DNA from: Candidatus Pacearchaeota archaeon
Lineage (GTDB): Archaea > Nanobdellota > Nanobdellia > Pacearchaeales > GW2011-AR1
Assembly (NCBI GenBank): GCA_018303945.1
Contig: JAGVXD010000005.1
Coordinates: 1-54,516, forward strand
Direction: 5' to 3'
DNA length: 54,516 nt
The position numbers and the translations under genes are program-made. The notes under the pieces were generated by a model. It was given only the letters and a program-made list of their open reading frames with translations. It searched no databases and had not been told where the DNA came from. Below are positions 12,923 through 52,166 of this stretch, piece after piece. How positions within the stretch are numbered: position 1 is the first letter of the stretch; each line of letters starts with the position of its first letter.

Positions 12923-13351
12923 GTGTCTTCCATATATAATTCTCTCCATCAGGCACACAGCGAGATAGAGCGGGAGATATTAGAGTTAGAAACGATAATT
13001 GGGGCGCGGGAGGTAAATTATCCCAATGCTCTGCATGTGCTTAAAAAACTGTTTAAAATGTGGGACAAGCACGAAGAGCAGGAAGAAGAAGTATTTATCA
13101 ATTTACAGAAAAGAGGCTTTACAATTCCTGTCAAGAAGATAATATTTGAGCATGGAAAACTAAAGAAAAAACGCGATGCGCTTGCCAATGCTATTTATTC
13201 CGGAAGTCATGTAAAAGCGCAGGAAGCTTTGCGTAAGGATGGCTTGCAGCTTATACGGGATTTAAGAGAACATATGAAAATGGAAGATTGGGTTTTGTAT
13301 GCTCTTCCCCAGAACGTATTGTCTAAAGAAGAGAGAACAAAACTCTTTTAA
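12923..13351 (+). CDS. hemerythrin-like HHE-domain protein (142 aa)
   Basis: All-helical four-helix-bundle protein. His and acidic residues occur at hemerythrin-like positions: HQAHSEIE near the N-terminus, WDKHEEQEEEVF, IIFEHGKLKKKRD and REHMKMEDWVLY. This matches the HHE cation-binding pattern of a non-heme di-iron site that binds oxygen or senses redox state. Some ligands deviate from the canonical HxxxE/HxxxH set, so di-iron binding is inferred. Starts at GTG 12923 with a TATATATA box upstream. Ends directly before tRNA-Glu. Confidence 0.72.
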   Translation: MSSIYNSLHQAHSEIEREILELETIIGAREVNYPNALHVLKKLFKMWDKHEEQEEEVFINLQKRGFTIPVKKIIFEHGKLKKKRDALANAIYSGSHVKAQEALRKDGLQLIRDLREHMKMEDWVLYALPQNVLSKEERTKLF

Positions 13352-13722: not shown

Positions 13723-14268
13723 TTATTGTTTCCAATCAACAAGAGTATAACGTCCTACAAAATCATTAGATTCATCCCCATTTTCTGTTTCTTTTTCCTT
13801 TCGTACAGAAGGTTTAGTGAGGTGCATGGTTATCCAAAGTCCAGTTGAATTATCTGTAATAAATGTCCCATCAAGTTCTTTATCTAAACCAAATGCCTTG
13901 ACTAATTTGCCAGGCCCATTTGTGAGATTTTTCTCGTCTGAACTGCCCTTATGCTTCATCATTATTTCTATTCCTTCTAATGGAATAACTTGCCTTATCA
14001 AAACTTCATTGTAAATATCTTCTCTAAATGTAGAAATTGCAAGCATATAATTTCCTTGAGAGGGATACATATGTATTGCGCCTGGAGTGTAAAAAGCCCC
14101 CCTATTTCTATTATTAGGAACTGCATTTCTCATAGAATAAGCATCTACTTGAGAGATAATACCGCTAATCTTCTTGCCTTTGTAATTACGAACTAATAGC
14201 TTTCCAACTAAATCGTAGCCTACTTGTCTTGAATCAAGAGCAAAAAATGATTGAGGCAATGCTTTCAT
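13723..14268 (-). CDS. DNA-3-methyladenine glycosylase (AAG/MPG family)
   Basis: Base-excision repair glycosylase of the AAG/MPG fold. Family landmarks: DLVGKLLVRNYKG near the N-terminus, NNRNRGAFYTPGAIHMYPSQGNYMLA in the middle, VLIRQVIPLEGIEIM, and LTNGPGKLVKAFGL. Length 181 aa is normal. The catalytic Glu of the usual ETEAY motif is replaced by Asp (QVDAY, Asp42), and the following HxxRG-type segment is altered (SMRNAV). This may lower or change activity. Transcribed divergently from the AbrB/SNF2 operon. Confidence 0.85.
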   Translation of the reverse strand: MKALPQSFFALDSRQVGYDLVGKLLVRNYKGKKISGIISQVDAYSMRNAVPNNRNRGAFYTPGAIHMYPSQGNYMLAISTFREDIYNEVLIRQVIPLEGIEIMMKHKGSSDEKNLTNGPGKLVKAFGLDKELDGTFITDNSTGLWITMHLTKPSVRKEKETENGDESNDFVGRYTLVDWKQ

Positions 14269-14333
14269 ATGATAGCGATATTTTTACAGTATTTAAATGT
14301 TTGCTTAGTTACTATTTTAAAATAATAACATTT

Positions 14334-14358
14334 AAAAATACACCTAAGGTGTATTTTT
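14334..14358. promoter_or_regulatory. 25-bp perfect palindrome abutting the AbrB-like start codon (operator)
   Basis: Half-site AAAAATACACCT, a central A, then its exact reverse complement ending at the base before the ATG at 14359. The left arm (TTTAAAAATA) also looks like a TATA box at -29 to -19. A protein bound here would block TBP and the start of a leaderless message. The obvious candidate ligand is the AbrB-like protein encoded immediately downstream. Confidence 0.75.
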
Positions 14359-14523
14359 ATGGCTGAAAAGAAAAGTTATGTAATTACGAAAAAGATAGCG
14401 AAGCATGGGAAACAGCCCATAATTCTAGTGCCTAAAATATTAGAAGTAGAGCTTAAACCAGGCACTATTGTCAAATTGCACATAGAAGTTGTCAAGGAGG
14501 TTGAAAATGGTTCTGGAAAGTAA
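14359..14523 (+). CDS. AbrB/SpoVT-like DNA-binding protein (54 aa)
   Basis: Swapped-hairpin AbrB-type fold inferred from the short basic N-terminus followed by KHGKQPIILVPKILE and LKPGTIVKLHIEVVKE. This is the strand-strand-helix-strand layout of antitoxin and transition-state regulators. First gene of the overlapping operon; its end overlaps the next start (14507) by 17 nt. It probably represses its own promoter through the palindrome at 14334-14358. It could also be an antitoxin, but no partner toxin is recognised downstream. Confidence 0.7.
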   Translation: MAEKKSYVITKKIAKHGKQPIILVPKILEVELKPGTIVKLHIEVVKEVENGSGK

Positions 14524-15310
14524 AATAAATATCGATGGAAACTCTAATTACCAGAAATTAGCGGCAAGACTGCAGGAAATAGCAAAAATGACTGAAAGCA
14601 TGACTTCTAAAGAGATTTCTGAAAGATGGGGAGAATCAAGTTTAGTATGGTTGCAAGGCGTTGACAATTGTATGGTCTATCTTAGAAAAGAAAAGAGAAT
14701 AGTAGAAAAAAAGAGAGAGAAAGTTCCACAAGAATACTACGAGCAAACTTCTGGCTTTGATTTTCCACAATTAAAAAGTTGGTATAATCCAAATGAAAAA
14801 TTAAAGCATAGACAGAGAGAACTCAAAAAGATAGTTTATACAGAAAGGATGCTTGAACTTATTGCTCAGAAATTTGATATAAATATAAAGCCTATTGCAA
14901 ATAGAGGGTCAGATGGCTTTGTTAAAACTTCAAAGGACTTGCTTAATTTATGTGATACTGACCCTAAAGCGAGATATATTATCCAGCTTTGCCAGGGAGA
15001 TGATGTGGATGTTGCAGACATTATAGCAGTTGTTTATGATGGAAAAATTGCAAGAGATGATGCAATTAAGCTCTTGCAAGAGCCATCTCTTAGAGATTAC
15101 TTGGGTGAATTTAGGAAACCAGTAGGAATTCCAGATATTGAAGAATATGCAAATGAGTTGTTGCCTCTTGATAAAAATGGAGTTGTTGCCTCTATAGTTT
15201 ACAGAAGACTTATAGAATGTAGAAGAAATAAGCTTGGGGCAAAGCCGAGTATTGAACAGCGTAAAGATTTCTTAGAAGAAGTACAGAGAAACTTAGAGAG
15301 GTTGATATGA
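14507..15310 (+). CDS. unknown protein, second gene of the repeat-protein/SNF2 operon (267 aa)
   Basis: No family recognised. Start ATG 14507 is fixed by a strong Shine-Dalgarno AGGAGG at about 14494-14499; an in-frame TTG at 14489 is rejected. The N-terminal third looks helical with a possible winged-helix segment (MTSKEISERWGESSLVWLQG). The rest is charged and helical. It lacks the repeat unit and C-terminal tail seen in the following genes. Overlaps the next start by 4 nt (ATGA). Confidence 0.7.
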   Translation: MVLESKINIDGNSNYQKLAARLQEIAKMTESMTSKEISERWGESSLVWLQGVDNCMVYLRKEKRIVEKKREKVPQEYYEQTSGFDFPQLKSWYNPNEKLKHRQRELKKIVYTERMLELIAQKFDINIKPIANRGSDGFVKTSKDLLNLCDTDPKARYIIQLCQGDDVDVADIIAVVYDGKIARDDAIKLLQEPSLRDYLGEFRKPVGIPDIEEYANELLPLDKNGVVASIVYRRLIECRRNKLGAKPSIEQRKDFLEEVQRNLERLI

Positions 15311-16134
15311 AATCACAACTCTATCAGACACATGAAGGGAGATTGATCGCGTTCGCAGCCCTAAAAAATGAACTTTGCAGGAATCCTTCCGGCCGGGAAA
15401 TGATGGAAAGATATCCAAATATAGAAAAGCCGTATAATGGAAGATACCGTAATTACTGGCAGAAATGGGAATTTGACAAAGCGTTTGATGATTTAATGAC
15501 TAAATTGGAAATAGTTCCTACAGAAGAAGATATTAATATTTTTATTTCCGGTGCAGTATTTTATTTTAATGATTTATCAGGCAAGAGAGAAAATAGAGGA
15601 CATTATGATTTACTAGATTATCTAGCAGATAGAGGTCTTGGACCTAATAGGGATGAACGAGACAAATTGAGAGTAAGGTTGAAAGAAGAGCATAATAGAA
15701 ATAGGATGAATGAGATAAACGATATATTCTCTGAAATGGAGAGAAAATTGGGAAAACAACCATCTTCTGAAGAATTTGAGAAAGCTCACAAAAGAGAATA
15801 TGGCTTCATTTTATATTCATTAGGCAATTGGACGAATTATCTTGCAACTCTAGGGAGAAAAACCTTAAGGACATTCCGTTATTGGGATGTTAAAACCGTA
15901 GATAAGGCATATGATGCACTGGAAGAAGATCTGAGGAGAACACCTACTTTTACTGAGTTCAAAATAAAAAATCCCGGGGCAATATCAAGAATTACTTCAG
16001 GAAAATATGATTCTTCTATCAAATCATGGAGAGATTATTTAGTTTACAGAGGTAAAAATCCCATAGAAAAAAGACACTCTCTTAATTTACTGGAATCTAT
16101 ATTAGAAGACCCTGAAACTGGAGGTCTGCCATGA
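15307..16134 (+). CDS. tandem-repeat protein A (homing-endonuclease-associated-repeat-like), 275 aa
   Basis: About four copies of a 55-65 residue unit, increasingly regular towards the C-terminus. The last is the clearest: TVDKAYDALEEDLRRTPTFT, EFKIKNPGA, SGKYDSSIKSWRDYLVYRGK. The pattern (L..eL.r.PT..EF...G....i..GrY...i.sWn.YL..rG) resembles the helical repeats found in arrays next to homing endonucleases (Pfam HNH_repeat); that comparison is from memory. C-terminal tail LNLLESILEDPETGG. Joined to both neighbours by 4-nt ATGA overlaps. Probably DNA-binding or scaffold. Confidence 0.75.
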   Translation: MKSQLYQTHEGRLIAFAALKNELCRNPSGREMMERYPNIEKPYNGRYRNYWQKWEFDKAFDDLMTKLEIVPTEEDINIFISGAVFYFNDLSGKRENRGHYDLLDYLADRGLGPNRDERDKLRVRLKEEHNRNRMNEINDIFSEMERKLGKQPSSEEFEKAHKREYGFILYSLGNWTNYLATLGRKTLRTFRYWDVKTVDKAYDALEEDLRRTPTFTEFKIKNPGAISRITSGKYDSSIKSWRDYLVYRGKNPIEKRHSLNLLESILEDPETGGLP

Positions 16135-16556
16135 TAAAACGTGTTTATTATCAATATTGGAAAGATTTTGAATCTTGGGAAAGATTTGGCTATGATAATA
16201 ATTATGATGAAAGGAAGGCTACTAACCTAACTGATAGTGATGCAAAAGAAGAGAGAAGCTGGTATAGAAGAGGCAAATATATGGGGTGGCTGAAAGATTT
16301 TCCTTTTGCAAGCAGATCTCCTTATCTAAAACTTGATGGGTGGAAGAAGCATGGGTTAGAAAACGAGTTTGATAAGAGGGGCGGCAGAAGCCTTAGAAAG
16401 AGCGGTAACATAGATGAGAGATCATGGTATCAACGAGGCGAGTATAAAGATTGGCTGGATCAATTTCCTTTTAAAAGGAAGAGAAGAAAGAGTAGAATTC
16501 TTCATAATTCATTATTGCTATTGGAATCTCTTCTCGAAGAAGGAGACATAAAATGA
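16131..16556 (+). CDS. small two-repeat protein with the shared C-terminal tail (141 aa)
   Basis: Contains a different duplicated unit of about 50 residues: W..FG......DERK..N..... followed by ERSWYRRGKYMGWLKDFPF, and again DERSWYQRGEYKDWLDQFPF. The tail LLLLESLLEEGDIK matches the tails of the neighbouring repeat proteins. Basic, aromatic-rich and probably DNA-binding. Overlaps on both sides by 4 nt. Family unknown. Confidence 0.7.
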   Translation: MIKRVYYQYWKDFESWERFGYDNNYDERKATNLTDSDAKEERSWYRRGKYMGWLKDFPFASRSPYLKLDGWKKHGLENEFDKRGGRSLRKSGNIDERSWYQRGEYKDWLDQFPFKRKRRKSRILHNSLLLLESLLEEGDIK

Positions 16557-17209
16557 GAAAAAGAAAGAATGTATTTTGGACTCCTAGTAAAATAGATGGG
16601 GCATTTAGTAGTCTAAGACATGAACTTGGTAGGGTTCCAACTAACGATGAATTTATAAATAAATATAGCGGCGCGATGAAATCAATAAGAAGGGGGATTT
16701 TTTCAGGTATTAACTCTTGGAATGATTACTTAATATCTAAGGGATATGACAAATGGAATATTGATGTTGAGAATGTTGATTCTCTTTATAGCGAATTGAA
16801 ACAAGAATTAGGCAGGATACCAAATGGAACTGAATTTTCTAAGAAAAGTTGCGGAGCATATGCTTTTATTGTAAGAAGAAAATATAGGCCTTCTATAAAA
16901 AATTACAATCAATTTGTTCAATTTAAGGAGGGCAAACCTGCTACTCCATTTAAATTATCCTGGAATCCTGAAAGAGTAAACGAAGTATTTTATGAACACA
17001 AGAGTCAATTGGAAAGAGTTCCAACATTTAGAGAATTTGCAAAAAAAAATAAAGGTGCTTTAAGGATGATACTTGAAGGAAGATATAACTTTTCTGTGAG
17101 AACTTGGAATGGTTTTTTAGAATCATTAGGAGAAAAAAATCCCAAAAAAGAAAAAGGCTTTCTTGGTGTTTTAGAAACAATTTTAGAAGGAGGAAATGAA
17201 AATGCCTAA
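16553..17209 (+). CDS. tandem-repeat protein B (three HNH_repeat-like units), 218 aa
   Basis: Three units beginning at about residues 8, 75 and 140. Each has a [FS]W.P..[IV][DN]..F lead, L...LgR[VI]PT..EF, a conserved Gly-Ala, then a Tyr/Phe-rich turn and [SR][WY]N.[YF]L. The first reads FWTPSKIDGAFSSLRHELGR. C-terminal tail FLGVLETILEGGNENA. The GGAGG coding for the Gly-Gly of the tail also acts as Shine-Dalgarno for the next gene. Confidence 0.75.
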   Translation: MRKRKNVFWTPSKIDGAFSSLRHELGRVPTNDEFINKYSGAMKSIRRGIFSGINSWNDYLISKGYDKWNIDVENVDSLYSELKQELGRIPNGTEFSKKSCGAYAFIVRRKYRPSIKNYNQFVQFKEGKPATPFKLSWNPERVNEVFYEHKSQLERVPTFREFAKKNKGALRMILEGRYNFSVRTWNGFLESLGEKNPKKEKGFLGVLETILEGGNENA

Positions 17210-17873
17210 AGTAAAAGCTAACAGGTATTGGAATAACCATAAGAATGTAGACTCGGCATTTGATAACCTTGAAAAAGAATTAGGCCATATTCCTACTTCA
17301 AGAGAGTTCAGAGATGTGAATGAATGTGCGTTTAAAGCAATTGCCAATGGAAGATATAATAGCGATATTAAGACATGGAATGGTTACTTAACATATAGAG
17401 ACAAAAAGGTAAATCAAGAAAGAGGAATCTGGACACCTAAAAAAATCGATGAAGCTTTTGATACATTGGAATCTCAGTTAAAAAAAACTCCTTCTCAAGA
17501 TGAATTTAAGAGAAAATATTTTGGAGCTTTTGATTCAATAGTCAGTGGGAGATATGCAAAAGAAGTGACCTCTTGGAATGCTTATCTGAAAAAGAGGGAT
17601 AAAGAAACAAATGTTGATTTGACAAATTGGTCTCCTAAAGCGATAGACGAGGCGTTTGATACATTGGAGCGTAAATTAGGTAAGACTCCAACCTCTGTAG
17701 AATTTCATAATTTGCATGGTGCTGCATTAAGAGCAATCAGCAAAGGAAGATATGACTCAAAGGTTCATTCATGGCCAGAATATCTCATTCATAGAGGAAA
17801 GAAACCTTATAGGACAAGAACTAATCCTATAAGAATTTTTGAAGACATCTTAGAAAATGGAGGCACACAATGA
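17196..17873 (+). CDS. tandem-repeat protein C (three units), 225 aa
   Basis: Three near-canonical repeats separated by short linkers. Units include WTPKKIDEAFDTLESQL, WSPKAIDEAFDTLERKLGK and three versions of GRY...[IV].[ST]W..YL..R.K. Units 2 and 3 are closely similar, suggesting recent internal duplication. Tail RIFEDILENGGTQ. Starts at ATG 17196 or 17202, 14 or 8 nt inside the preceding gene, behind GGAGG. Ends with a 4-nt overlap with the next gene. Confidence 0.75.
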   Translation: MKMPKVKANRYWNNHKNVDSAFDNLEKELGHIPTSREFRDVNECAFKAIANGRYNSDIKTWNGYLTYRDKKVNQERGIWTPKKIDEAFDTLESQLKKTPSQDEFKRKYFGAFDSIVSGRYAKEVTSWNAYLKKRDKETNVDLTNWSPKAIDEAFDTLERKLGKTPTSVEFHNLHGAALRAISKGRYDSKVHSWPEYLIHRGKKPYRTRTNPIRIFEDILENGGTQ

Positions 17874-18547
17874 GTAGAAGACAAGAAAACTATTGGAGTA
17901 ATCCTTCTAATATTGATAAGGCATTCAGTCAGCTTTGCAAAAAAATAAAGAGAATTCCTACGGCAAGAGAATTCGCAAGTGAATACTGTGGAGCAATGGC
18001 TTCACTAGCAAAAGGAAGATATTATAAAATTATAACAACCTACAATCAATATTTGTTAAGTCATGGAAAAAATGTGACTAGAGACTCAAATAAATATAAT
18101 TCGCCTGCAAAAATTAATGGGGCGTTTGATGAACTGGAAAAGGAAATAGGTAAGGTGCCTACCGCTAGAGAAATTGAAGAAAGTTGTGGTGGATTATTAG
18201 TATCATTAAGAAAAGGAAGATATCATCCAGAAATTAAAACTTATAATGATTACTTAAAACATCGTGGAAAATTAGTGTTGCATGATATAGGTAGATGGTC
18301 TTCTCCTAATAAAATCGATGAAGCTTTTGACAGACTTGAAGAATCTCTTGGAAGAACGCCTAGAAGAAAAGATTTTGTAATAAAATACGCTGGAGCATTA
18401 TCTGCCATTGTTCAAGGCAGATATAATAAGAATATCCACTACTGGAATGAATATCTTATGTTTAGAAACAGAGTTATTAACAAAAAATCAGGTAAAGACA
18501 CGACATTAATTCTTGAATCTCTTCTCGAAGAAGGAGGCACACAATGA
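17870..18547 (+). CDS. tandem-repeat protein D (three units), 225 aa
   Basis: Same length and architecture as protein C, with more divergent units: NIDKAFSQLCKKIKRIPTAR, KINGAFDELEKEIGKVPTAR and KIDEAFDRLEESLGRTPRRK. Each is followed by a Gly-rich turn and a GRY.....[TY]YN.YL or HYWNEYL segment. Tail TLILESLLEEGGTQ. About 20 nt encoding the tail are identical to the end of the 141-aa gene at about 16523-16543, pointing to duplication or strong constraint. ATGA overlap with the SNF2 gene. Confidence 0.75.
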   Translation: MSRRQENYWSNPSNIDKAFSQLCKKIKRIPTAREFASEYCGAMASLAKGRYYKIITTYNQYLLSHGKNVTRDSNKYNSPAKINGAFDELEKEIGKVPTAREIEESCGGLLVSLRKGRYHPEIKTYNDYLKHRGKLVLHDIGRWSSPNKIDEAFDRLEESLGRTPRRKDFVIKYAGALSAIVQGRYNKNIHYWNEYLMFRNRVINKKSGKDTTLILESLLEEGGTQ

Positions 18548-21021
18548 CTAAAGTAAATTCTGAACAGCAAAGAGAGATAAGATCGGCATATAGAGAAATA
18601 TATCAGGATTTTGCGGAAAAAACTGGAGAATTGTTCAGAATGTATGAGGGAAAAATACCTGGACTTGAAGAAAGGGTGAGAAATCCTGCTTACGATATAA
18701 ATGGAGATAATGGAGGTTCAGAATATCTGTATGATTTTCCTTCATTCTATCAGGTAGAAGGCGTACAGTTTCTTATGGATCAAAAGAGAGTTCTAATTGC
18801 AGATGAAATGGGTGGTGGGAAAACTGCACAAGCAATTGCCGGAAAGATAGCATTGGACAATAAGCTCGGAAGGAAAGTAAAAACACTTATTGTCTCTCCA
18901 AATAGACAAGTAAAGAGAATGTGGGCGGAAAAACTCAAAGAATATATTACTCCTGAACAATATGCAACTATCAGAATAGAGAATATAGAGAGTTACAAGA
19001 AAGCTAATATAGATGAAGCAGACGTTGTTCTTATAGATTATCATGTATTTTCTTTCTCTGATAATAAGTCGAATAATCTAAGTAGAAAAGAATTAAAGAG
19101 AAAATTGATGAATGCCGGCTTCAATTACTTTGTTCTAGATGAAGCCCATAATGTTAAGAATTTCTCATCAGCAAGCAGATTTAATCATGTAAATGACCTT
19201 GCTTCTCAATCAGAGTATCTCTGTTTGTTATCCGGAACTCCAATTCCAAATAGCATCCAAGATATATATGCTTTGATTGCACTTCTAAAGCCAGAACATA
19301 TTGATGAGAGCGGCAAGAAGGTTGGATATAAAAACGCTTCAGCAGTTGCGGCAGAACATTACAAAACTCCTTCTGTCGTCGGAGCAATTCTTAGGGCTTC
19401 AAGATTAGAAAGAAAGCTTGAAAATGTAGCTAATTTGCCTTCTAAAACGGAAGAGTGCGTACATATAGAAAGGCTAAGCGATGCCCAACAGGAATTATAC
19501 GATTCTATATATGAAGATGATTCACTTTCAGGTTTGCAGAAAATTCAGAAACTTAAGCAAGCATTGCTTAATCCAGCTATCATTGATAAGAATCTAACTT
19601 CTGTGCCGCAAGCAAAATATGAAAAATTAGATGAGATAGTAAGAAGAACTTTAAAGAAAGGAGAGAAGATTATTATTTATTCTCCTAACTTCAGAATAGG
19701 TGTTGTTGACACACTAAGAGAACGCTATGAAGAATTTGGAGCCGTGCATATGGATGGGAGCAATACTTCTTCTCGTTCTTTCGTTATTAAGAGATTTCAG
19801 AAAGATGCCAGTACTAAGATAATGATTATGAATAAAGTTGGAGGAGAAGGCATTCCACTTACTGCTGCGAACAATCTTGTATTTCTTGAAGACCCATATT
19901 CTCCTGGTGAAAGAAGGCAAGTAATTGGAAGAATTTGGCGTCCAGGACAGAAAAAACCCGTGACTATATTAACGTTGAACGTAGATTGCACAATTGATGA
20001 TGGCTTAAGGAAATTTCTTGAGCAGAAGAGAATTGCCATTGAATATATAGAAAAGGGGCTTCCTTTAACTTCAGAGCAGAGAAAATTACTAAGTGGAGAT
20101 AATGATAAAGCTCTTGCTCTATGGCTTAGAATTAATCAGAATTACTTATATACTCCTGCACAAATCACTGGATCATTAATTAGAAATATTAAAGAAAAGC
20201 CTGAAGAAAAGGTGGTTAAGATTTTTGAAGGAAGGTTTGGAAAACATCTTGCTGAATCTCTTACAAAGAGTTGGGGAGATTCTGTATTAAGCAATTGCGC
20301 AAATCTTTACACTACAATAATAAATGGAATAGAGAAGAAAGAAGGAAATTTAGAGAAGATTGTGGACATAGCTTCTGGATTTGGAGCTCTGTCGCATGCT
20401 TTACAAAGGAGAGGCATAGTTAATATAGATGCAGATAAGCATCACTTTAACTCCCCTTATGCTTCTAAAGAAAACATTAACTTGATAGGCAAAATGACAA
20501 AACTCCCTATTGAAGAAAATGGCACATTTAATTTAGCACTTTGTTCTATGGCTTTAGATATATTGCCAAATACTTCAGAAGAGCCTGGACGCGTGAAGGC
20601 AGTTGGAGAAGCAAATAGAGTTTTACAAAGAGGAGGGTATTATATGTTTGTTCTTTCTGCTCCAGCAGTTAAAAATGACGATAAAATGAGGGAAGGAATG
20701 AAGAAAATCGGGTTTGAGGTTTTGCCTGAACTTACCGGCTTTGTAAAGTCGAAAGACAGAAGAATAAAAACTAATCTGTATGTACTTACTGCCCAGAAAA
20801 CGTTTGATTTAGATAATTCACAAAATGTTGCTGATTTCAGAGAATACTTTGAGCTTAATTCACCGGCAGTTGCAAGAATATTGGGAACTGCGCAGAAACG
20901 CAGAGGCGACGCAGTTGAGTTTGAATTTGTAAGAGAAACTGAAATAGAGGATTTGCAAAAAGCAATCAGAAGATTTCAGGAGAGAAAAGGGAAATCTAAT
21001 TTTTCTTCTTCGCAGGTCTGA
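18544..21021 (+). CDS. SNF2-family helicase fused to a class I methyltransferase (825 aa)
   Basis: Superfamily 2 SNF2/RapA-like translocase. Walker A/motif I ADEMGGGKTAQ (86-96), motif Ia TLIVSPN, motif II DEAH (199-202), motif III LLSGTPIPN (228-236), motif V GGEGIPLTAANNLVFLE and motif VI QVIGRIWRPGQ (459-469). After a helical linker (about 500-600) comes a Rossmann methyltransferase: motif I VDIASGFGALSHAL (607-620), acidic NIDAD, LCSMALDIL (666-674) and EANRVLQRGGYYMFVLS (689-705). The methyltransferase lacks the NPPY/SPPY motif of DNA N-methylases and looks closer to Methyltransf_11/Rrp8-type folds, so its substrate is open. Last gene of the operon. It probably remodels DNA bound by the repeat proteins; defence is the leading guess, not shown. 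Confidence 0.85.
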   Translation: MTKVNSEQQREIRSAYREIYQDFAEKTGELFRMYEGKIPGLEERVRNPAYDINGDNGGSEYLYDFPSFYQVEGVQFLMDQKRVLIADEMGGGKTAQAIAGKIALDNKLGRKVKTLIVSPNRQVKRMWAEKLKEYITPEQYATIRIENIESYKKANIDEADVVLIDYHVFSFSDNKSNNLSRKELKRKLMNAGFNYFVLDEAHNVKNFSSASRFNHVNDLASQSEYLCLLSGTPIPNSIQDIYALIALLKPEHIDESGKKVGYKNASAVAAEHYKTPSVVGAILRASRLERKLENVANLPSKTEECVHIERLSDAQQELYDSIYEDDSLSGLQKIQKLKQALLNPAIIDKNLTSVPQAKYEKLDEIVRRTLKKGEKIIIYSPNFRIGVVDTLRERYEEFGAVHMDGSNTSSRSFVIKRFQKDASTKIMIMNKVGGEGIPLTAANNLVFLEDPYSPGERRQVIGRIWRPGQKKPVTILTLNVDCTIDDGLRKFLEQKRIAIEYIEKGLPLTSEQRKLLSGDNDKALALWLRINQNYLYTPAQITGSLIRNIKEKPEEKVVKIFEGRFGKHLAESLTKSWGDSVLSNCANLYTTIINGIEKKEGNLEKIVDIASGFGALSHALQRRGIVNIDADKHHFNSPYASKENINLIGKMTKLPIEENGTFNLALCSMALDILPNTSEEPGRVKAVGEANRVLQRGGYYMFVLSAPAVKNDDKMREGMKKIGFEVLPELTGFVKSKDRRIKTNLYVLTAQKTFDLDNSQNVADFREYFELNSPAVARILGTAQKRRGDAVEFEFVRETEIEDLQKAIRRFQERKGKSNFSSSQV

Positions 21022-50386: not shown

Positions 50387-50491
50387 GTTCCTATTTACTT
50401 CTTGGAAATATACATTTTATCAGATGAATGTTTTTATAGTCTATTCTGGAAAGCATTATGTCCTAGCTAACTATGCAACAAGGATGCATAG

Positions 50492-50706
50492 GGCAGACTG
50501 GGCTACACGTCCTTTCACTAAGGCGAGAAATTGCTATAAAATACAGCCATGACAGCAATGAAATGGCAGTGAGTTTGATAAAGTGAAAGGGCTACTCTGG
50601 GGGCGTGGTACGTTAACAGGCTTGATGACAACAACAGGTCTAATGCTAATGACAGGAACAGGCTTGATAATGACAATGGTTGCTCGGTCGAATAGAATAG
50701 TCTGCC
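50492..50706 (+). ncRNA. DGR template RNA region, bounded by an 8-bp inverted repeat
   Basis: GGCAGACT (50492-50499) and AGTCTGCC (50699-50706) are exact complements enclosing the template repeat; inside, CCTTTCAC/GTGAAAGG form a further stem upstream of TR. No Avd-like ORF fits in 50387-50720, so this gap is probably non-coding template RNA. Confidence 0.6.
50601..50690 (+). repeat. DGR template repeat (TR)
   Basis: 90-bp template with 26 adenines, 11 of them changed in VR. In the VR reading frame it encodes Asn/Asp-rich codons (AAC, AAT) at the positions that vary, the usual DGR arrangement for maximum diversity. Ends 30 bp before the RT start. Confidence 0.95.
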
Positions 50707-50720
50707 GTTAGGATTTTATA

Positions 50721-52166
50721 ATGCTATACACAAAATTATGCTCTTATGAAAATCTTTTCAGCGCTTATCAAAAAGCAAGACAGGGAAAGACAAAGAAGCA
50801 TTATATTCTGACATTTGAGAAAGAGTTGGAAAAGAATCTTAATCAATTACAAATAGAGCTTATAACTCAGACTTACAAGCCAAAGCCTCTGAGAACATTT
50901 ATCATAAGGGATCCAAAAACTAGGAAAATATCAAAATCACGATTTAGGGATAGGGTTATCCATCACGCTCTAATCAATATCATAGGTTCGGATTTCAGCA
51001 AGGGTTTTATTTATGATTCTCATGCAAATCAGATAGGGAAAGGAACATTAAAGGCACTTGAAAGGTTTGATCATTTTAAGCGCAAAGCCTCAAAAAATGG
51101 AACTTGTCCTTGCTATGTGTTGAAGGCAGACATAAGACATTATTTTGAAGAAGTAAATCATAGTGTGCTAATATCAATCCTTAGAAGAAAAATAAAAGAT
51201 GAAAAAGTAATCTGGCTTGTAAAACAGATTCTATCAAATATATCTGAGAATCCATCGGGGGGGGGGGGCGAACGCCTCCAAGGCATGCCTCTTGGCAACT
51301 ACACTTCTCAATTTTTTGCCAATGTATATCTTAATGAACTTGACCAATATGTTAAGCACATCTTAAAGGCAAAATATTACATTCGCTATGTGGATGACTT
51401 TGTTATTCTTTCTCATTCAAAACAAGAGCTTGAATTATACAAAGAGAAAATTGATAGATTCTTAACAGAGATACTGCATCTCAGTTTACATTCCGACAAG
51501 TCAAAAGTGTTGATGCTTGATCAGGGTATTCCCTTTCTCGGATTTAGGATTTTTACACATAGCAGGATAATAAGAAAGGCAAATCTAAGAAAATTTCAGG
51601 GAAAATTTCGGGAATTTAAGACATTATATAAAGAAAGACAAATAAACAGAGAGCAGGTTGTGGAAAAATTAGAAGGTTGGATGGCATATGCAAGACAGGG
51701 CAATACTTACAAATACAGGAGAAAGCTACTCCAAAGATTCAACAAAGATTTTCCAATTAAGAATAAAAGTCAAATCATCCTATCTAAAAAGATAACTAAT
51801 TTTTTCAGAAAGTATTATTCAAGCAAGGTGGAGTTTAGTGTTCAGAAAACATTGTTTCTTCTCAGGAAAGGATTAAGCATAGAAGAGATAGAAAAAGAAA
51901 GATGCCTAAAGCAGGGAACTGTCTGGGAGCACGTTATAAATCTTATAGAGCATGGACAATTAGCTGTTTGGAATATCATGCCTAAAAAGAAAATTGTTTA
52001 TTTATTGCAAAGAATAAAAGATCCCGAAGAGCCTCTTAAGCAGATCAAGGAAAGAATATATGATCAAAGAATAACGTATGATGAGATTGCTTGTGTGAGA
52101 GCACATATGAAGATGAAGGAGAAAATAAAGAAAAGCAATAGCCTTAAACACGCAAAGAGTCACTAG
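50721..52166 (+). CDS. DGR-type reverse transcriptase with C-terminal helix-turn-helix (481 aa)
   Basis: Copies TR RNA into adenine-mutagenised cDNA for transfer to VR. Catalytic Asp137 in LKADIRHYF, motif 4 GMPLGNYTSQFFANVYLNEL (188-207, the DGR-type xxxGNxTSQ), and catalytic YVDD (223-226). A thumb-like region follows with LEGWMAYARQGNTYKY. The last 130 residues add an HTH_40/RecQ-tail-like segment (LRKGLSIEEIEKERCLKQGT), unusual for DGR RTs, which are commonly shorter. A run of 12 G (51257-51268) encodes Gly-rich residues 180-183 just before motif 4. Start ATG 50721. Confidence 0.92.
   Translation: MLYTKLCSYENLFSAYQKARQGKTKKHYILTFEKELEKNLNQLQIELITQTYKPKPLRTFIIRDPKTRKISKSRFRDRVIHHALINIIGSDFSKGFIYDSHANQIGKGTLKALERFDHFKRKASKNGTCPCYVLKADIRHYFEEVNHSVLISILRRKIKDEKVIWLVKQILSNISENPSGGGGERLQGMPLGNYTSQFFANVYLNELDQYVKHILKAKYYIRYVDDFVILSHSKQELELYKEKIDRFLTEILHLSLHSDKSKVLMLDQGIPFLGFRIFTHSRIIRKANLRKFQGKFREFKTLYKERQINREQVVEKLEGWMAYARQGNTYKYRRKLLQRFNKDFPIKNKSQIILSKKITNFFRKYYSSKVEFSVQKTLFLLRKGLSIEEIEKERCLKQGTVWEHVINLIEHGQLAVWNIMPKKKIVYLLQRIKDPEEPLKQIKERIYDQRITYDEIACVRAHMKMKEKIKKSNSLKHAKSH

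What the first reader, a model, noticed from the sequence alone, without database searches (positions are those of the whole stretch)
14334..21021. Candidate new system: arrayed repeat proteins plus a SNF2-methyltransferase fusion
Eight genes overlap by a few bases each: an AbrB-like regulator, an unknown protein, five small proteins (four made of ~60-residue repeats, one of a different repeat), and a SNF2 translocase fused to a non-DNA-type methyltransferase. The repeats resemble homing-endonuclease-associated repeats, yet there is no endonuclease domain. The set behaves as one transcription unit and matches no defence or chromatin system I know. Several repeat proteins with different repeat sequences could give a modular DNA-recognition code, with the translocase as effector.
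Basis: partly seen in the sequence, partly recalled or inferred. Interest (0 to 1): 0.82.

Follow-up and report, generated by a model that had tools for sequence, protein, structure and literature searches.

The report
Archaeal DNA-targeting system with swappable repeats
In a tiny archaeon, a DNA motor fused to a methyl-adding enzyme sits in one gene cluster with a crippled DNA-repair-type protein and five small repeat proteins that share one tail; related clusters recur in the archaeal phylum, and this may be an undescribed way to steer a DNA-modifying machine to chosen sequences.

Summary
The observation largely holds. Eight + strand genes overlap at 14359-21021: a 54-aa ORF (AbrB identity unsupported), unknown ORF2, four proteins with 13 HNH_repeat-type units, one with two "WY" repeats, and a SNF2-methyltransferase fusion.

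The exact gene set was found nowhere else, but its type recurs: 19 SNF2-methyltransferase loci in 18 genomes (methyltransferase Pfam-supported in 15). Of the 15 found through motor or methyltransferase, 10 have an MPG-like gene in the cluster. System MPGs lack the catalytic Glu in 14 of 15; the 30 strongest MPGs of the phylum sample all keep it. The base-stacking aromatic stays in 15 of 15. Nine of 19 loci carry repeat-array proteins of differing repeat kinds. The window's array proteins share a tail: a profile from four ranks the unrelated fifth first of 712 ORFs.

Best reading: exchangeable DNA-reading subunits dock on a SNF2-methyltransferase, with the MPG-like protein as a non-excising base probe; a restriction-modification or BREX-like device without a recognised nuclease. 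Module recurrence is shown; targeting, methylation and defence are inferred.

The parts
13723..14268 (-). Degenerate methylpurine-DNA glycosylase (MPG/AAG-like) paralogue, divergent from the operon
   Evidence: PF02245 E 3.6e-25; human AAG chain in PDB E 2.2e-7; catalytic Glu position holds Asp; a canonical MPG copy lies elsewhere in the genome (G000:C7, E 2.2e-70)
14333..14359 (.). 27-nt inverted repeat (12-bp arms, 3-nt loop) in the intergenic region shared by the MPG-like gene and the operon; possible operator
   Evidence: Terminator-like scan, (6 such sites found, 3.6 expected, so the scan alone is no evidence of function); sequence. Operator role is inference
14359..14523 (+). 54-aa ORF, possible small regulator (AbrB identity not supported)
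   Evidence: ORF; no NCBIfam match, no relevant Pfam match
14507..15310 (+). ORF2, candidate adaptor (TTG start at 14489 also possible); possibly related to the C-terminal domain of array proteins of other loci
   Evidence: hhalign against that domain E 0.0056 and 0.0029, one comparison each, probability only 6.5 and 10.6%; PADLOC AbiEi E 0.0022; no hit of the domain profile in its own genome; AF2 model mean pLDDT 49.6, not usable
15307..16134 (+). Array protein 1: four HNH_repeat-type units, C-terminal tail LLESILED
   Evidence: PF18780 E 1.3e-5, 0.1 bit under cut-off; units; tail
16131..16556 (+). Array protein 2: two WY repeats, C-terminal tail LLESLLEE
   Evidence: HMM trained only on the L073 array finds it at E 1.6e-31; tail ranks 1st of 712 ORFs
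16553..17209 (+). Array protein 3: three HNH_repeat units, tail VLETILEG
   Evidence: PF18780 E 1.3e-6
17196..17873 (+). Array protein 4: three HNH_repeat units, tail IFEDILEN
   Evidence: PF18780 E 1.2e-8; AF2 model mean pLDDT 78.8, pTM 0.38, with recurring helical units
17870..18547 (+). Array protein 5: three HNH_repeat units, tail ILESLLEE
   Evidence: PF18780 E 1.4e-7
18544..21021 (+). SNF2-type motor fused to a class I SAM methyltransferase (SNF2 and helicase C domains about 18748-19947, methyltransferase core about 20362-20649)
   Evidence: PF00176 E 5.9e-30, PF00271 1e-12, PF08241 5e-6; same fusion in other loci

Best explanation
The window holds one member of a patchy, multi-component archaeal DNA-targeting system. 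Shown: its recurrent parts are a SNF2-methyltransferase fusion; in most loci an MPG-fold protein that has lost glycosylase catalytic residues but kept the base-stacking aromatic; and in about half of the loci one or more repeat-array proteins of DNA-binding type, whose repeat kind differs from locus to locus. Inferred: the array proteins are exchangeable specificity subunits. They dock through a shared short tail (window and type D loci), or are fused to an adaptor domain (L024, L025, L072, L073), and bring the SNF2-methyltransferase to chosen sequences. The SNF2 part moves along or remodels that DNA and the methyltransferase marks a base there. The MPG-like protein flips and inspects bases without cutting them out, reading the mark or a foreign or damaged base. 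The most likely use is telling self from invading DNA and silencing or stalling the invader, as in restriction-modification or BREX logic, without a nuclease that I can recognise.
For: Fusion in 19 loci of 18 genomes; Pfam sees a SNF2 or helicase C domain in 19 of 19 and a methyltransferase family over its cut-off in 15 of 19. MPG-like gene in the cluster of 10 of the 15 loci found by motor/methyltransferase searches; MPG families linked by hhalign at 3.8e-9, 5.3e-10 and 1.7e-11. Four of the 5 weak MPG hits that I fetched had such a motor in the cluster. Catalytic Glu in the 30 strongest MPG hits of the phylum sample against 1 of 15 system MPGs; aromatic at Tyr127 in 15 of 15. Distances of fusion and MPG-like protein correlate, Mantel r 0.746, p 0.0001, n 14, host relatedness not controlled. 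Tail profile from the four HNH_repeat proteins ranks the WY protein 1st of 712, score 18.84 against 10.36 next; ranks 3, 5 and 6 are array proteins of other loci. WY repeats were seen in 2 of 252 genomes, both of them sources of the query and both inside these systems. In the L024 HTH array and the L073 WY array dN/dS is 0.95 and 0.85 in a variable segment against 0.35 and 0.17 elsewhere; both segments were chosen after looking.
Against: No nuclease or other killing effector was recognised. The methyltransferase lacks the DNA amino-methyltransferase motif in 19 of 19. In type D loci it is weak in Pfam (L112 E 0.0077, L111 0.062, below cut-off) or not seen (L110, L114), and motif I is broken in L114. 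MPG-like is absent from 5 of 15 motor-found loci. No arrays were recognised in type A or B loci (10 of 19). L072's array units are by eye without Pfam support. In the L025 HTH array the segment is not exceptional (rank 17 of 46 shifts). A tail profile trained on type D loci places window tails only at ranks 9, 12, 26, 35 and 287 of 647, and the 260- and 261-aa array proteins of L112 are not in the top 15. ORF2-adaptor homology is weak. The exact window gene set was not found elsewhere. GC profile not distinctive. Walker A of type A motors is RKT in five and QKT in one. Eight of 13 sampled genomes with a system MPG show no canonical MPG, so the system protein could still serve repair there.
Confidence: 0.45

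Rival explanations
1. A host gene-regulation or chromatin-type system: array proteins place a SNF2 remodeller and a methyltransferase (of DNA or of a chromatin protein) at host loci.
For: Best solved relatives of the motor are SNF2/Rad54-family and chromatin remodellers. No nuclease recognised. Methyltransferase without DNA motif IV. Several array proteins per locus would suit several targets.
Against: Patchy distribution: 16 of 371 phylum genomes (with 36, 75, 79). In the family search 3 of 181 genomes, with G306 of the same family missed by that profile. Array proteins differ in number and repeat kind between loci, unlike a conserved regulator. A degenerate MPG paralogue is not expected.
Confidence: 0.25
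2. A DNA alkylation-damage response: the MPG-like protein senses damaged purines and the SNF2 motor remodels or clears DNA there.
For: MPG is a repair fold. In L064 a canonical MPG gene lies directly beside the MPG-like gene. Eight of 13 sampled genomes with a system MPG show no canonical MPG.
Against: Catalytic Glu lost in 14 of 15. Five of those 13 genomes, the window's among them, keep a separate canonical MPG. Repeat arrays of several kinds are not needed for damage sensing.
Confidence: 0.1
3. A selfish or mobile-element-derived locus (homing-endonuclease-related repeats captured with a helicase), carried without a defined host benefit.
For: HNH_repeat is named for homing endonucleases. 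Patchy distribution; an IS66-like transposase (named by eye) next to the incomplete locus L078.
Against: No integrase, recombinase or endonuclease seen in the operon; recurrent multi-gene composition with correlated divergence; no hit in phage records for two array proteins; viral contig scans gave nothing or distant SNF2 relatives whose surroundings I did not read.
Confidence: 0.1
4. Chance neighbourhood: unrelated overlapping genes in a small genome.
For: Small archaeal genomes pack genes tightly. The exact gene set recurs nowhere that I searched.
Against: The same gene types together in many genomes, correlated divergence, shared tails, WY repeats seen only in these loci.
Confidence: 0.02

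Closest known systems
Archaeal EVE - COG1743 methyltransferase - DUF499 - SWI2/SNF2 helicase-nuclease operon (PMC7641849, passages read)
   Same: Archaeal operon with a SNF2 motor, a methyltransferase and a modified-base reader
MORC/paraMORC - SWI2/SNF2 restriction-modification operons (PMC2292703, passages read)
   Same: SNF2 motors with methylases; the type B locus L026 has a GHKL ATPase (PF13589 E 1.6e-11) next to SNF2-methyltransferase
   Different: No nuclease, no DNA-type methylase and no GHKL gene in the window operon
MADS (MAD2 methyltransferase)
   Same: PADLOC model mad2 is the best defence-methyltransferase match of the methyltransferase half (E 9.5e-8 for L059; best 1.8e-4, in 2 of the 3 rows of A3)
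   Different: The only other MADS match seen is mad8 at E 0.0039 in the SNF2 part of L026; such matches are common between class I methyltransferases (recalled)
Type I restriction-modification and BREX (recalled)
   Same: Logic of motor, methyltransferase and separate specificity subunits
   Different: Specificity here would come from repeat arrays; HsdS, HsdR nuclease or PglX-type methyltransferase were not among the matches
Zorya ZorD, Dpd DpdE, DISARM DrmD SNF2 proteins
   Same: SNF2 region matches their models (E 1.9e-38, 1.2e-30, 1.9e-17)
   Different: The listed matches cover the SNF2 part only; no partner genes of those systems among the proteins scanned
TALE-type modular DNA-binding proteins (recalled)
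   Same: Arrays of similar units with variability in part of the unit
   Different: Other folds; few units per array (about 2-7 of one kind in the arrays counted), and several array proteins in some loci

Membership tests
Pfam PF18780 HNH_repeat arrays | Profile match over curated cut-off | tested here: met
   Three of four proteins over the cut-off of 26 bits (29, 35.5, 32.2), the fourth 25.9
Homing endonuclease | Catalytic endonuclease domain | tested here: not met
   No endonuclease domain by Pfam in seven operon proteins or the 54-aa ORF
Methylpurine-DNA glycosylase (active AAG/MPG) | MPG fold by profile | tested here: met
   PF02245 E 3.6e-25, above cut-off; NCBIfam TIGR00567 E 6.6e-22 but below its cut-off, 78 of 116 bits
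Methylpurine-DNA glycosylase (active AAG/MPG) | Catalytic Glu (human E125) and pocket His/Asn | tested here: not met
   Window has Asp at the Glu site; Glu in 1 of 15 system proteins against 30 of 30 strongest MPG hits; His136 0 of 15 against 29 of 30, Asn169 5 of 15 against 30 of 30
Canonical DNA amino-methyltransferase | [DNS]PP[YFWH] motif IV | tested here: not met
   0 of 19 in the last 45% of each protein
Class I SAM methyltransferase | Motif I glycine-rich loop and Methyltransf_11 profile | tested here: met
   PF08241 E 5e-6, over cut-off; motif I IVDIASG
DISARM / Zorya / Dpd / BREX / MADS | Partner genes of the named system | tested here: not met
   PADLOC scans of seven operon proteins and the MPG-like gene, and of seven proteins of L059, L060, L026 and L110, give matches to SNF2 or methyltransferase models; weak others for window proteins are AbiEi 0.0022 (ORF2), CorA 0.013, DrmMII 0.049
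SpoVT/AbrB regulator (54-aa ORF) | AbrB profile match | tested here: not met
   Pfam up to E 10 gives only an unrelated 0.13, NCBIfam nothing
Type I RM-like logic | Sequence-specific targeting by separate subunits | not testable with these tools
   Needs binding assays
SNF2-MTase / MPG-like / array system described here | SNF2-methyltransferase fusion with MPG-like gene and array protein in one cluster | tested here: met
   Window; all three features in 8 loci: window, L024, L025, L072, L110, L112, L114, L111; arrays by eye in L072 and L111, methyltransferase by alignment or weak Pfam in the last four

The most novel reading that the evidence does not exclude
A natural plug-in, protein-guided DNA-targeting platform: one SNF2-methyltransferase engine accepts many interchangeable arrays of mixed DNA-reading modules (HNH/HGGF, HTH, WY, ~95-aa repeats) through a common docking tail, and uses a dead alkyl-purine glycosylase as reader of a ring-methylated or otherwise unusual purine mark that the engine writes.
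Probability: 0.25. Interest if true: 0.95.

Novelty: new variant of a known kind. Interest (0 to 1): 0.8.

Why it matters
If the array proteins are exchangeable targeting subunits, this is a natural programmable DNA-targeting toolkit of small modules in archaea, usable for engineering. If the MPG-like protein is a reader, it shows a repair enzyme turned into a sensor of a DNA mark, and points to a DNA modification not made by the usual DNA methyltransferases. Either is testable with a handful of purified proteins. It also adds a recurrent candidate immune or epigenetic system to DPANN-type archaea, where few are worked out (last clause recalled).

Tried and rejected
Rejected: AbrB identity of the first ORF. 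Homing endonuclease: no catalytic domain seen. Membership in PADLOC systems. Homology of ORF2 with the ~360-411-aa gene after SNF2 in type A loci: hhalign E 0.28 for ORF2; the adaptor domain gave 0.0067 in another part of that gene; not claimed. N-terminal segment of type A SNF2-methyltransferases as an HNH_repeat: best E 0.45, not claimed.

Led nowhere: PDB fold search with the HNH_repeat model, none at E <= 0.001; the listed top rows include many sigma-factor chains, E 0.36 and above. ORF2 model, mean pLDDT 49.6, not searched. Scan of genome contigs with the single protein, nothing; with A3 only two loci, both already known. Viral scans: A3, A5 and A4 nothing; A6 gave six SNF2 relatives at 22-32% identity, whose neighbourhoods I did not read. 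Phage records: nothing for one HNH_repeat protein and for the WY array. Plasmid records: 376 with a match to the fusion, none where one place covers 80% of it. Literature searches; as far as the listings and the passages read show, none described this combination; most subscription journals are not held.

Rows dropped: of the 58 genomes with a hit, I kept those whose hit lies in an ORF with SNF2; most others are stand-alone frames of about 160-300 aa that I took as generic methyltransferases without a family scan. G060:C69 (L068, 989 aa) was dropped on partial reading and its sugar-enzyme neighbours, without a Pfam run. Of the 19 genomes, those with SNF2 only were dropped. Weak or split MPG hits in G154, G291, G228 and G002 were not followed. 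G109 (L113) was followed but the MPG-like frame runs off the contig end. My first MPG residue count was filtered by a motif and so circular; one search replaces it, but its 30 controls are the strongest MPG hits, not a random draw.

Full report
What is there. The window is contig C21 of an unnamed 0.8 Mb genome. ORF lists confirm eight overlapping genes on the + strand, 14359-21021. Pfam identifies HNH_repeat in four of them and SNF2 plus Methyltransf_11 in the last. I count 13 HNH_repeat-type units, 4+3+3+3. The 54-aa first ORF is not supported as AbrB. Directly upstream and divergent lies 13723-14268, an MPG-family protein, with a 27-nt inverted repeat at 14333-14359 in the shared intergenic region. 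The exact window set was not found elsewhere: ORF2 hit only its own genome among 56 relatives.

The fusion recurs. A protein search of 371 genomes of the phylum gave two near-full-length relatives, L003 and L004, re-fetched as L024 and L025. A profile of their and the window's methyltransferase halves (A3) searched in 371 phylum genomes, then in 181 genomes of the family, and follow-up of weak MPG hits led to 19 loci in 18 genomes. They are: window, L024, L025, L072, L073 (type C); L059, L060, L061, L062, L064, L065 (type A); L026, L063, L066, L067 (type B); L110, L112, L114, L111 (type D). The type letters are mine. Sixteen of these genomes are in the sample of 371; two more come from the family search. 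Pfam has now been run on all 19 fusions. SNF2-rel_dom is listed for 18 of 19 (L064 below its cut-off), and the remaining one, L065, has Helicase_C at 1.2e-6. A methyltransferase family passes its cut-off in 15 of 19. The four others are the type D loci: L112 (0.0077) and L111 (0.062) are weak, L110 and L114 have none, and there the domain rests on alignment. Their motif I reads VLAEASG, FADIGGG, VLSEGSG and, in L114, FLADAAA, which looks broken.

The MPG-like neighbour. Fifteen loci were found through the motor or the methyltransferase. Ten of them have an MPG-like gene in the cluster: window, L024, L025, L072, L059, L060, L061, L062, L064, L065. In type A one gene lies between it and the fusion; in the window it is the divergent neighbour of the operon's first gene. 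The five without are L073, L026, L066, L067 and L063, the last on a short contig. Pfam sees PF02245 in the window, L024, L025, L072 and L078, L110, L112, L114, L111, and below cut-off in L059, L061, L062. L060, L064 and L065 have no Pfam hit to it and join by profile-profile comparison: window and a canonical MPG to L024/L025 3.8e-9, these to L059/L061/L062 5.3e-10, these to L060/L064/L065 1.7e-11; direct comparison of the last group with the first two gives only 0.003-0.004. The adaptor search found L078, where MPG-like and HTH-array-adaptor genes are adjacent and no SNF2 was seen in the region fetched. Of five weak MPG hits fetched, four sit in a cluster with a SNF2-methyltransferase and one runs off its contig. 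MPG of any sort was found in 69 of 371 genomes, so the linkage is not a by-product of MPG being everywhere. Of the 13 sampled genomes with a system MPG, five also show a canonical one (G000, G191, G117, G306, G133) and eight do not.

The MPG-like proteins are altered where the enzyme works. On one alignment of the 30 strongest MPG hits of the phylum sample and 15 system-associated proteins, the catalytic Glu is present in 30 of 30 and 1 of 15 (L111; the window has Asp). The pocket aromatic at Tyr127 is Tyr in 30 of 30, and Tyr, Trp or Phe in 15 of 15. His136 is kept in 29 of 30 and 0 of 15, Asn169 in 30 of 30 and 5 of 15. The stretch between is gapped in the system proteins, so the His count is less sure. 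Residue numbers are those of human AAG. I recalled their roles and placed them by counting along the PDB alignment, on the recalled assumption that the chain starts at residue 80. A reader that stacks on a flipped base but does not cut is the natural inference; it was not tested. Pairwise distances of SNF2-methyltransferase and MPG-like proteins correlate (Mantel r 0.746, p 0.0001, n 14); host relatedness was not controlled.

The array proteins. I find them in nine of 19 loci. Profile support exists in seven: window, L024, L025, L073, L110, L112, L114. Two are by eye: L111 (~95-aa repeats) and L072, whose units Pfam does not support. The kinds are HNH_repeat and its HGGF form (Pfam hits the L115 822-aa protein at 9.5e-7), HTH units, WY units and the ~95-aa repeat. 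L115, the continuation of L110, has five overlapping array proteins after the motor, as the window has five before it; its 822-aa member mixes HGGF and HTH units, and the 260-aa protein of L112/L116 mixes HTH (by eye), WY and HGGF units. A WY profile from L073 alone finds the window protein at 1.6e-31 and the L112 protein at 3.1e-28 among the frames of the loci held. A WY search of 252 genomes, with a profile that included both, hit only these two genomes. In L024, L025, L072 and L073 the array is fused to a C-terminal domain (A5). Window ORF2 may be its separate relative, but the statistic is weak (E 0.0056 and 0.0029), A5 did not hit the window's genome, and PADLOC's AbiEi matches ORF2 at 0.0022.

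A shared tail. All five window array proteins end in a variant of LLESILEE. A profile from the four HNH_repeat proteins ranks the WY protein first of 712 ORFs (18.84 against 10.36 next), and ranks 3, 5 and 6 are array proteins of L114, L110 and L112; the 260- and 261-aa proteins of L112 are not in the top 15. In the L110/L112 loci the tails read LLEQYIGG and similar. A profile that leaves out the 261-aa protein ranks it directly below its training members, and two window proteins follow. The reverse test is weaker: a type-D-trained profile places the window tails at ranks 9, 12, 26, 35 and 287 of 647. In L114 similar stretches also occur at N-termini (by eye).

Variation within arrays. In the L024 HTH array (5 full units) the recognition-helix segment has dN/dS 0.95 against 0.35 outside (rank 3 of 56 circular shifts). 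In the L073 WY array (5 units) it is 0.85 against 0.17 (rank 3 of 50). Both segments were chosen after I had seen the repeats, so these tests are partly circular. L025 (4 units) has 0.63 against 0.24, but its segment is not exceptional (rank 17 of 46). This is what units with different DNA targets would show; it is not a code.

Mechanism. I commit to a modular DNA-targeting device: arrays choose the DNA, tails or adaptor connect them to the SNF2-methyltransferase, the motor and methyltransferase act there, and the MPG-like protein inspects bases. The steps shown are composition, linkage, shared tails and loss of MPG catalytic residues. DNA binding, docking, the methyl acceptor and the biological purpose are inferred. 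The methyltransferase has no DNA amino-methyltransferase motif in 19 of 19, so a DNA mark is uncertain; the nearest solved methyltransferases carry no substrate in their titles (1vl5 E 1.2e-6, 3dlc 3e-5). I think defence the most likely use, by analogy with SNF2-methyltransferase operons (PMC2292703 and PMC7641849, passages read). I did not recognise a nuclease. Defence genes near these loci were not counted.

Known relatives. SNF2 models of Zorya, Dpd, DISARM and BREX match the motor part; MAD2 of MADS is the best defence methyltransferase match. Of the eight window proteins put to NCBIfam, none passes a cut-off. The archaeal EVE-SNF2-nuclease operon is the closest in plan. My nine literature searches over an open-access library did not show this combination.

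Noticed in passing
window 50462-52166: RT-16 RNA (Rfam RF03019, 82.2 bits) directly before a 481-aa reverse transcriptase with an HTH_40 domain (RVT_1 E 3.3e-20, HTH_40 2.9e-16); possibly a defence- or retron-like unit
   Followed up: partly
window 12923-13351: 142-aa protein that looks like a hemerythrin-type cation-binding protein (by eye), between a replication factor C-like gene (by eye) and the MPG-like gene
   Followed up: no
L064 11919-13107: A canonical MPG gene (E 1.3e-59) lies beside the degenerate MPG-like gene, on the other strand
   Followed up: partly
L026 6305-15218, L066 1347-7173, L067 216-6444: Type B loci: SNF2-methyltransferase with a GHKL ATPase (L026) and proteins ending in a shared domain of pattern GYKxPF...HPxLxxGD (by eye, B3-like?), where no MPG-like gene was seen; a possible alternative reader
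   Followed up: partly
L067 2609-5629: Three tandem paralogues (by eye) of about 320-360 aa after the SNF2-methyltransferase; Pfam finds nothing in the first
   Followed up: no
L111 2655-4097: Array of ~95-aa repeats with a near-identical 30-residue stretch and a variable part (by eye), between SNF2 and MPG-like genes
   Followed up: no
L073 10422-10823: CheD-like protein (by eye) beside the SNF2-methyltransferase in the one type C locus where no MPG-like gene was seen
   Followed up: no
L059, L060, L061, L062, L064, L065: Type A loci share further genes in the cluster (about 360-1319 aa); of the four scanned, three of L059 and one of L060, none matches a Pfam family over its cut-off. Their SNF2 Walker A reads RKT in five and QKT in L065 where the window reads GKT
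   Followed up: partly
L114 10736-11563: 275-aa array-type protein with a weak ASCH match (E 0.024, below cut-off); ASCH is a relative of the EVE-type reader domains (recalled)
   Followed up: no
L116 5636-9637: GyrA-like gene with a large insert that looks like an intein (by eye)
   Followed up: no
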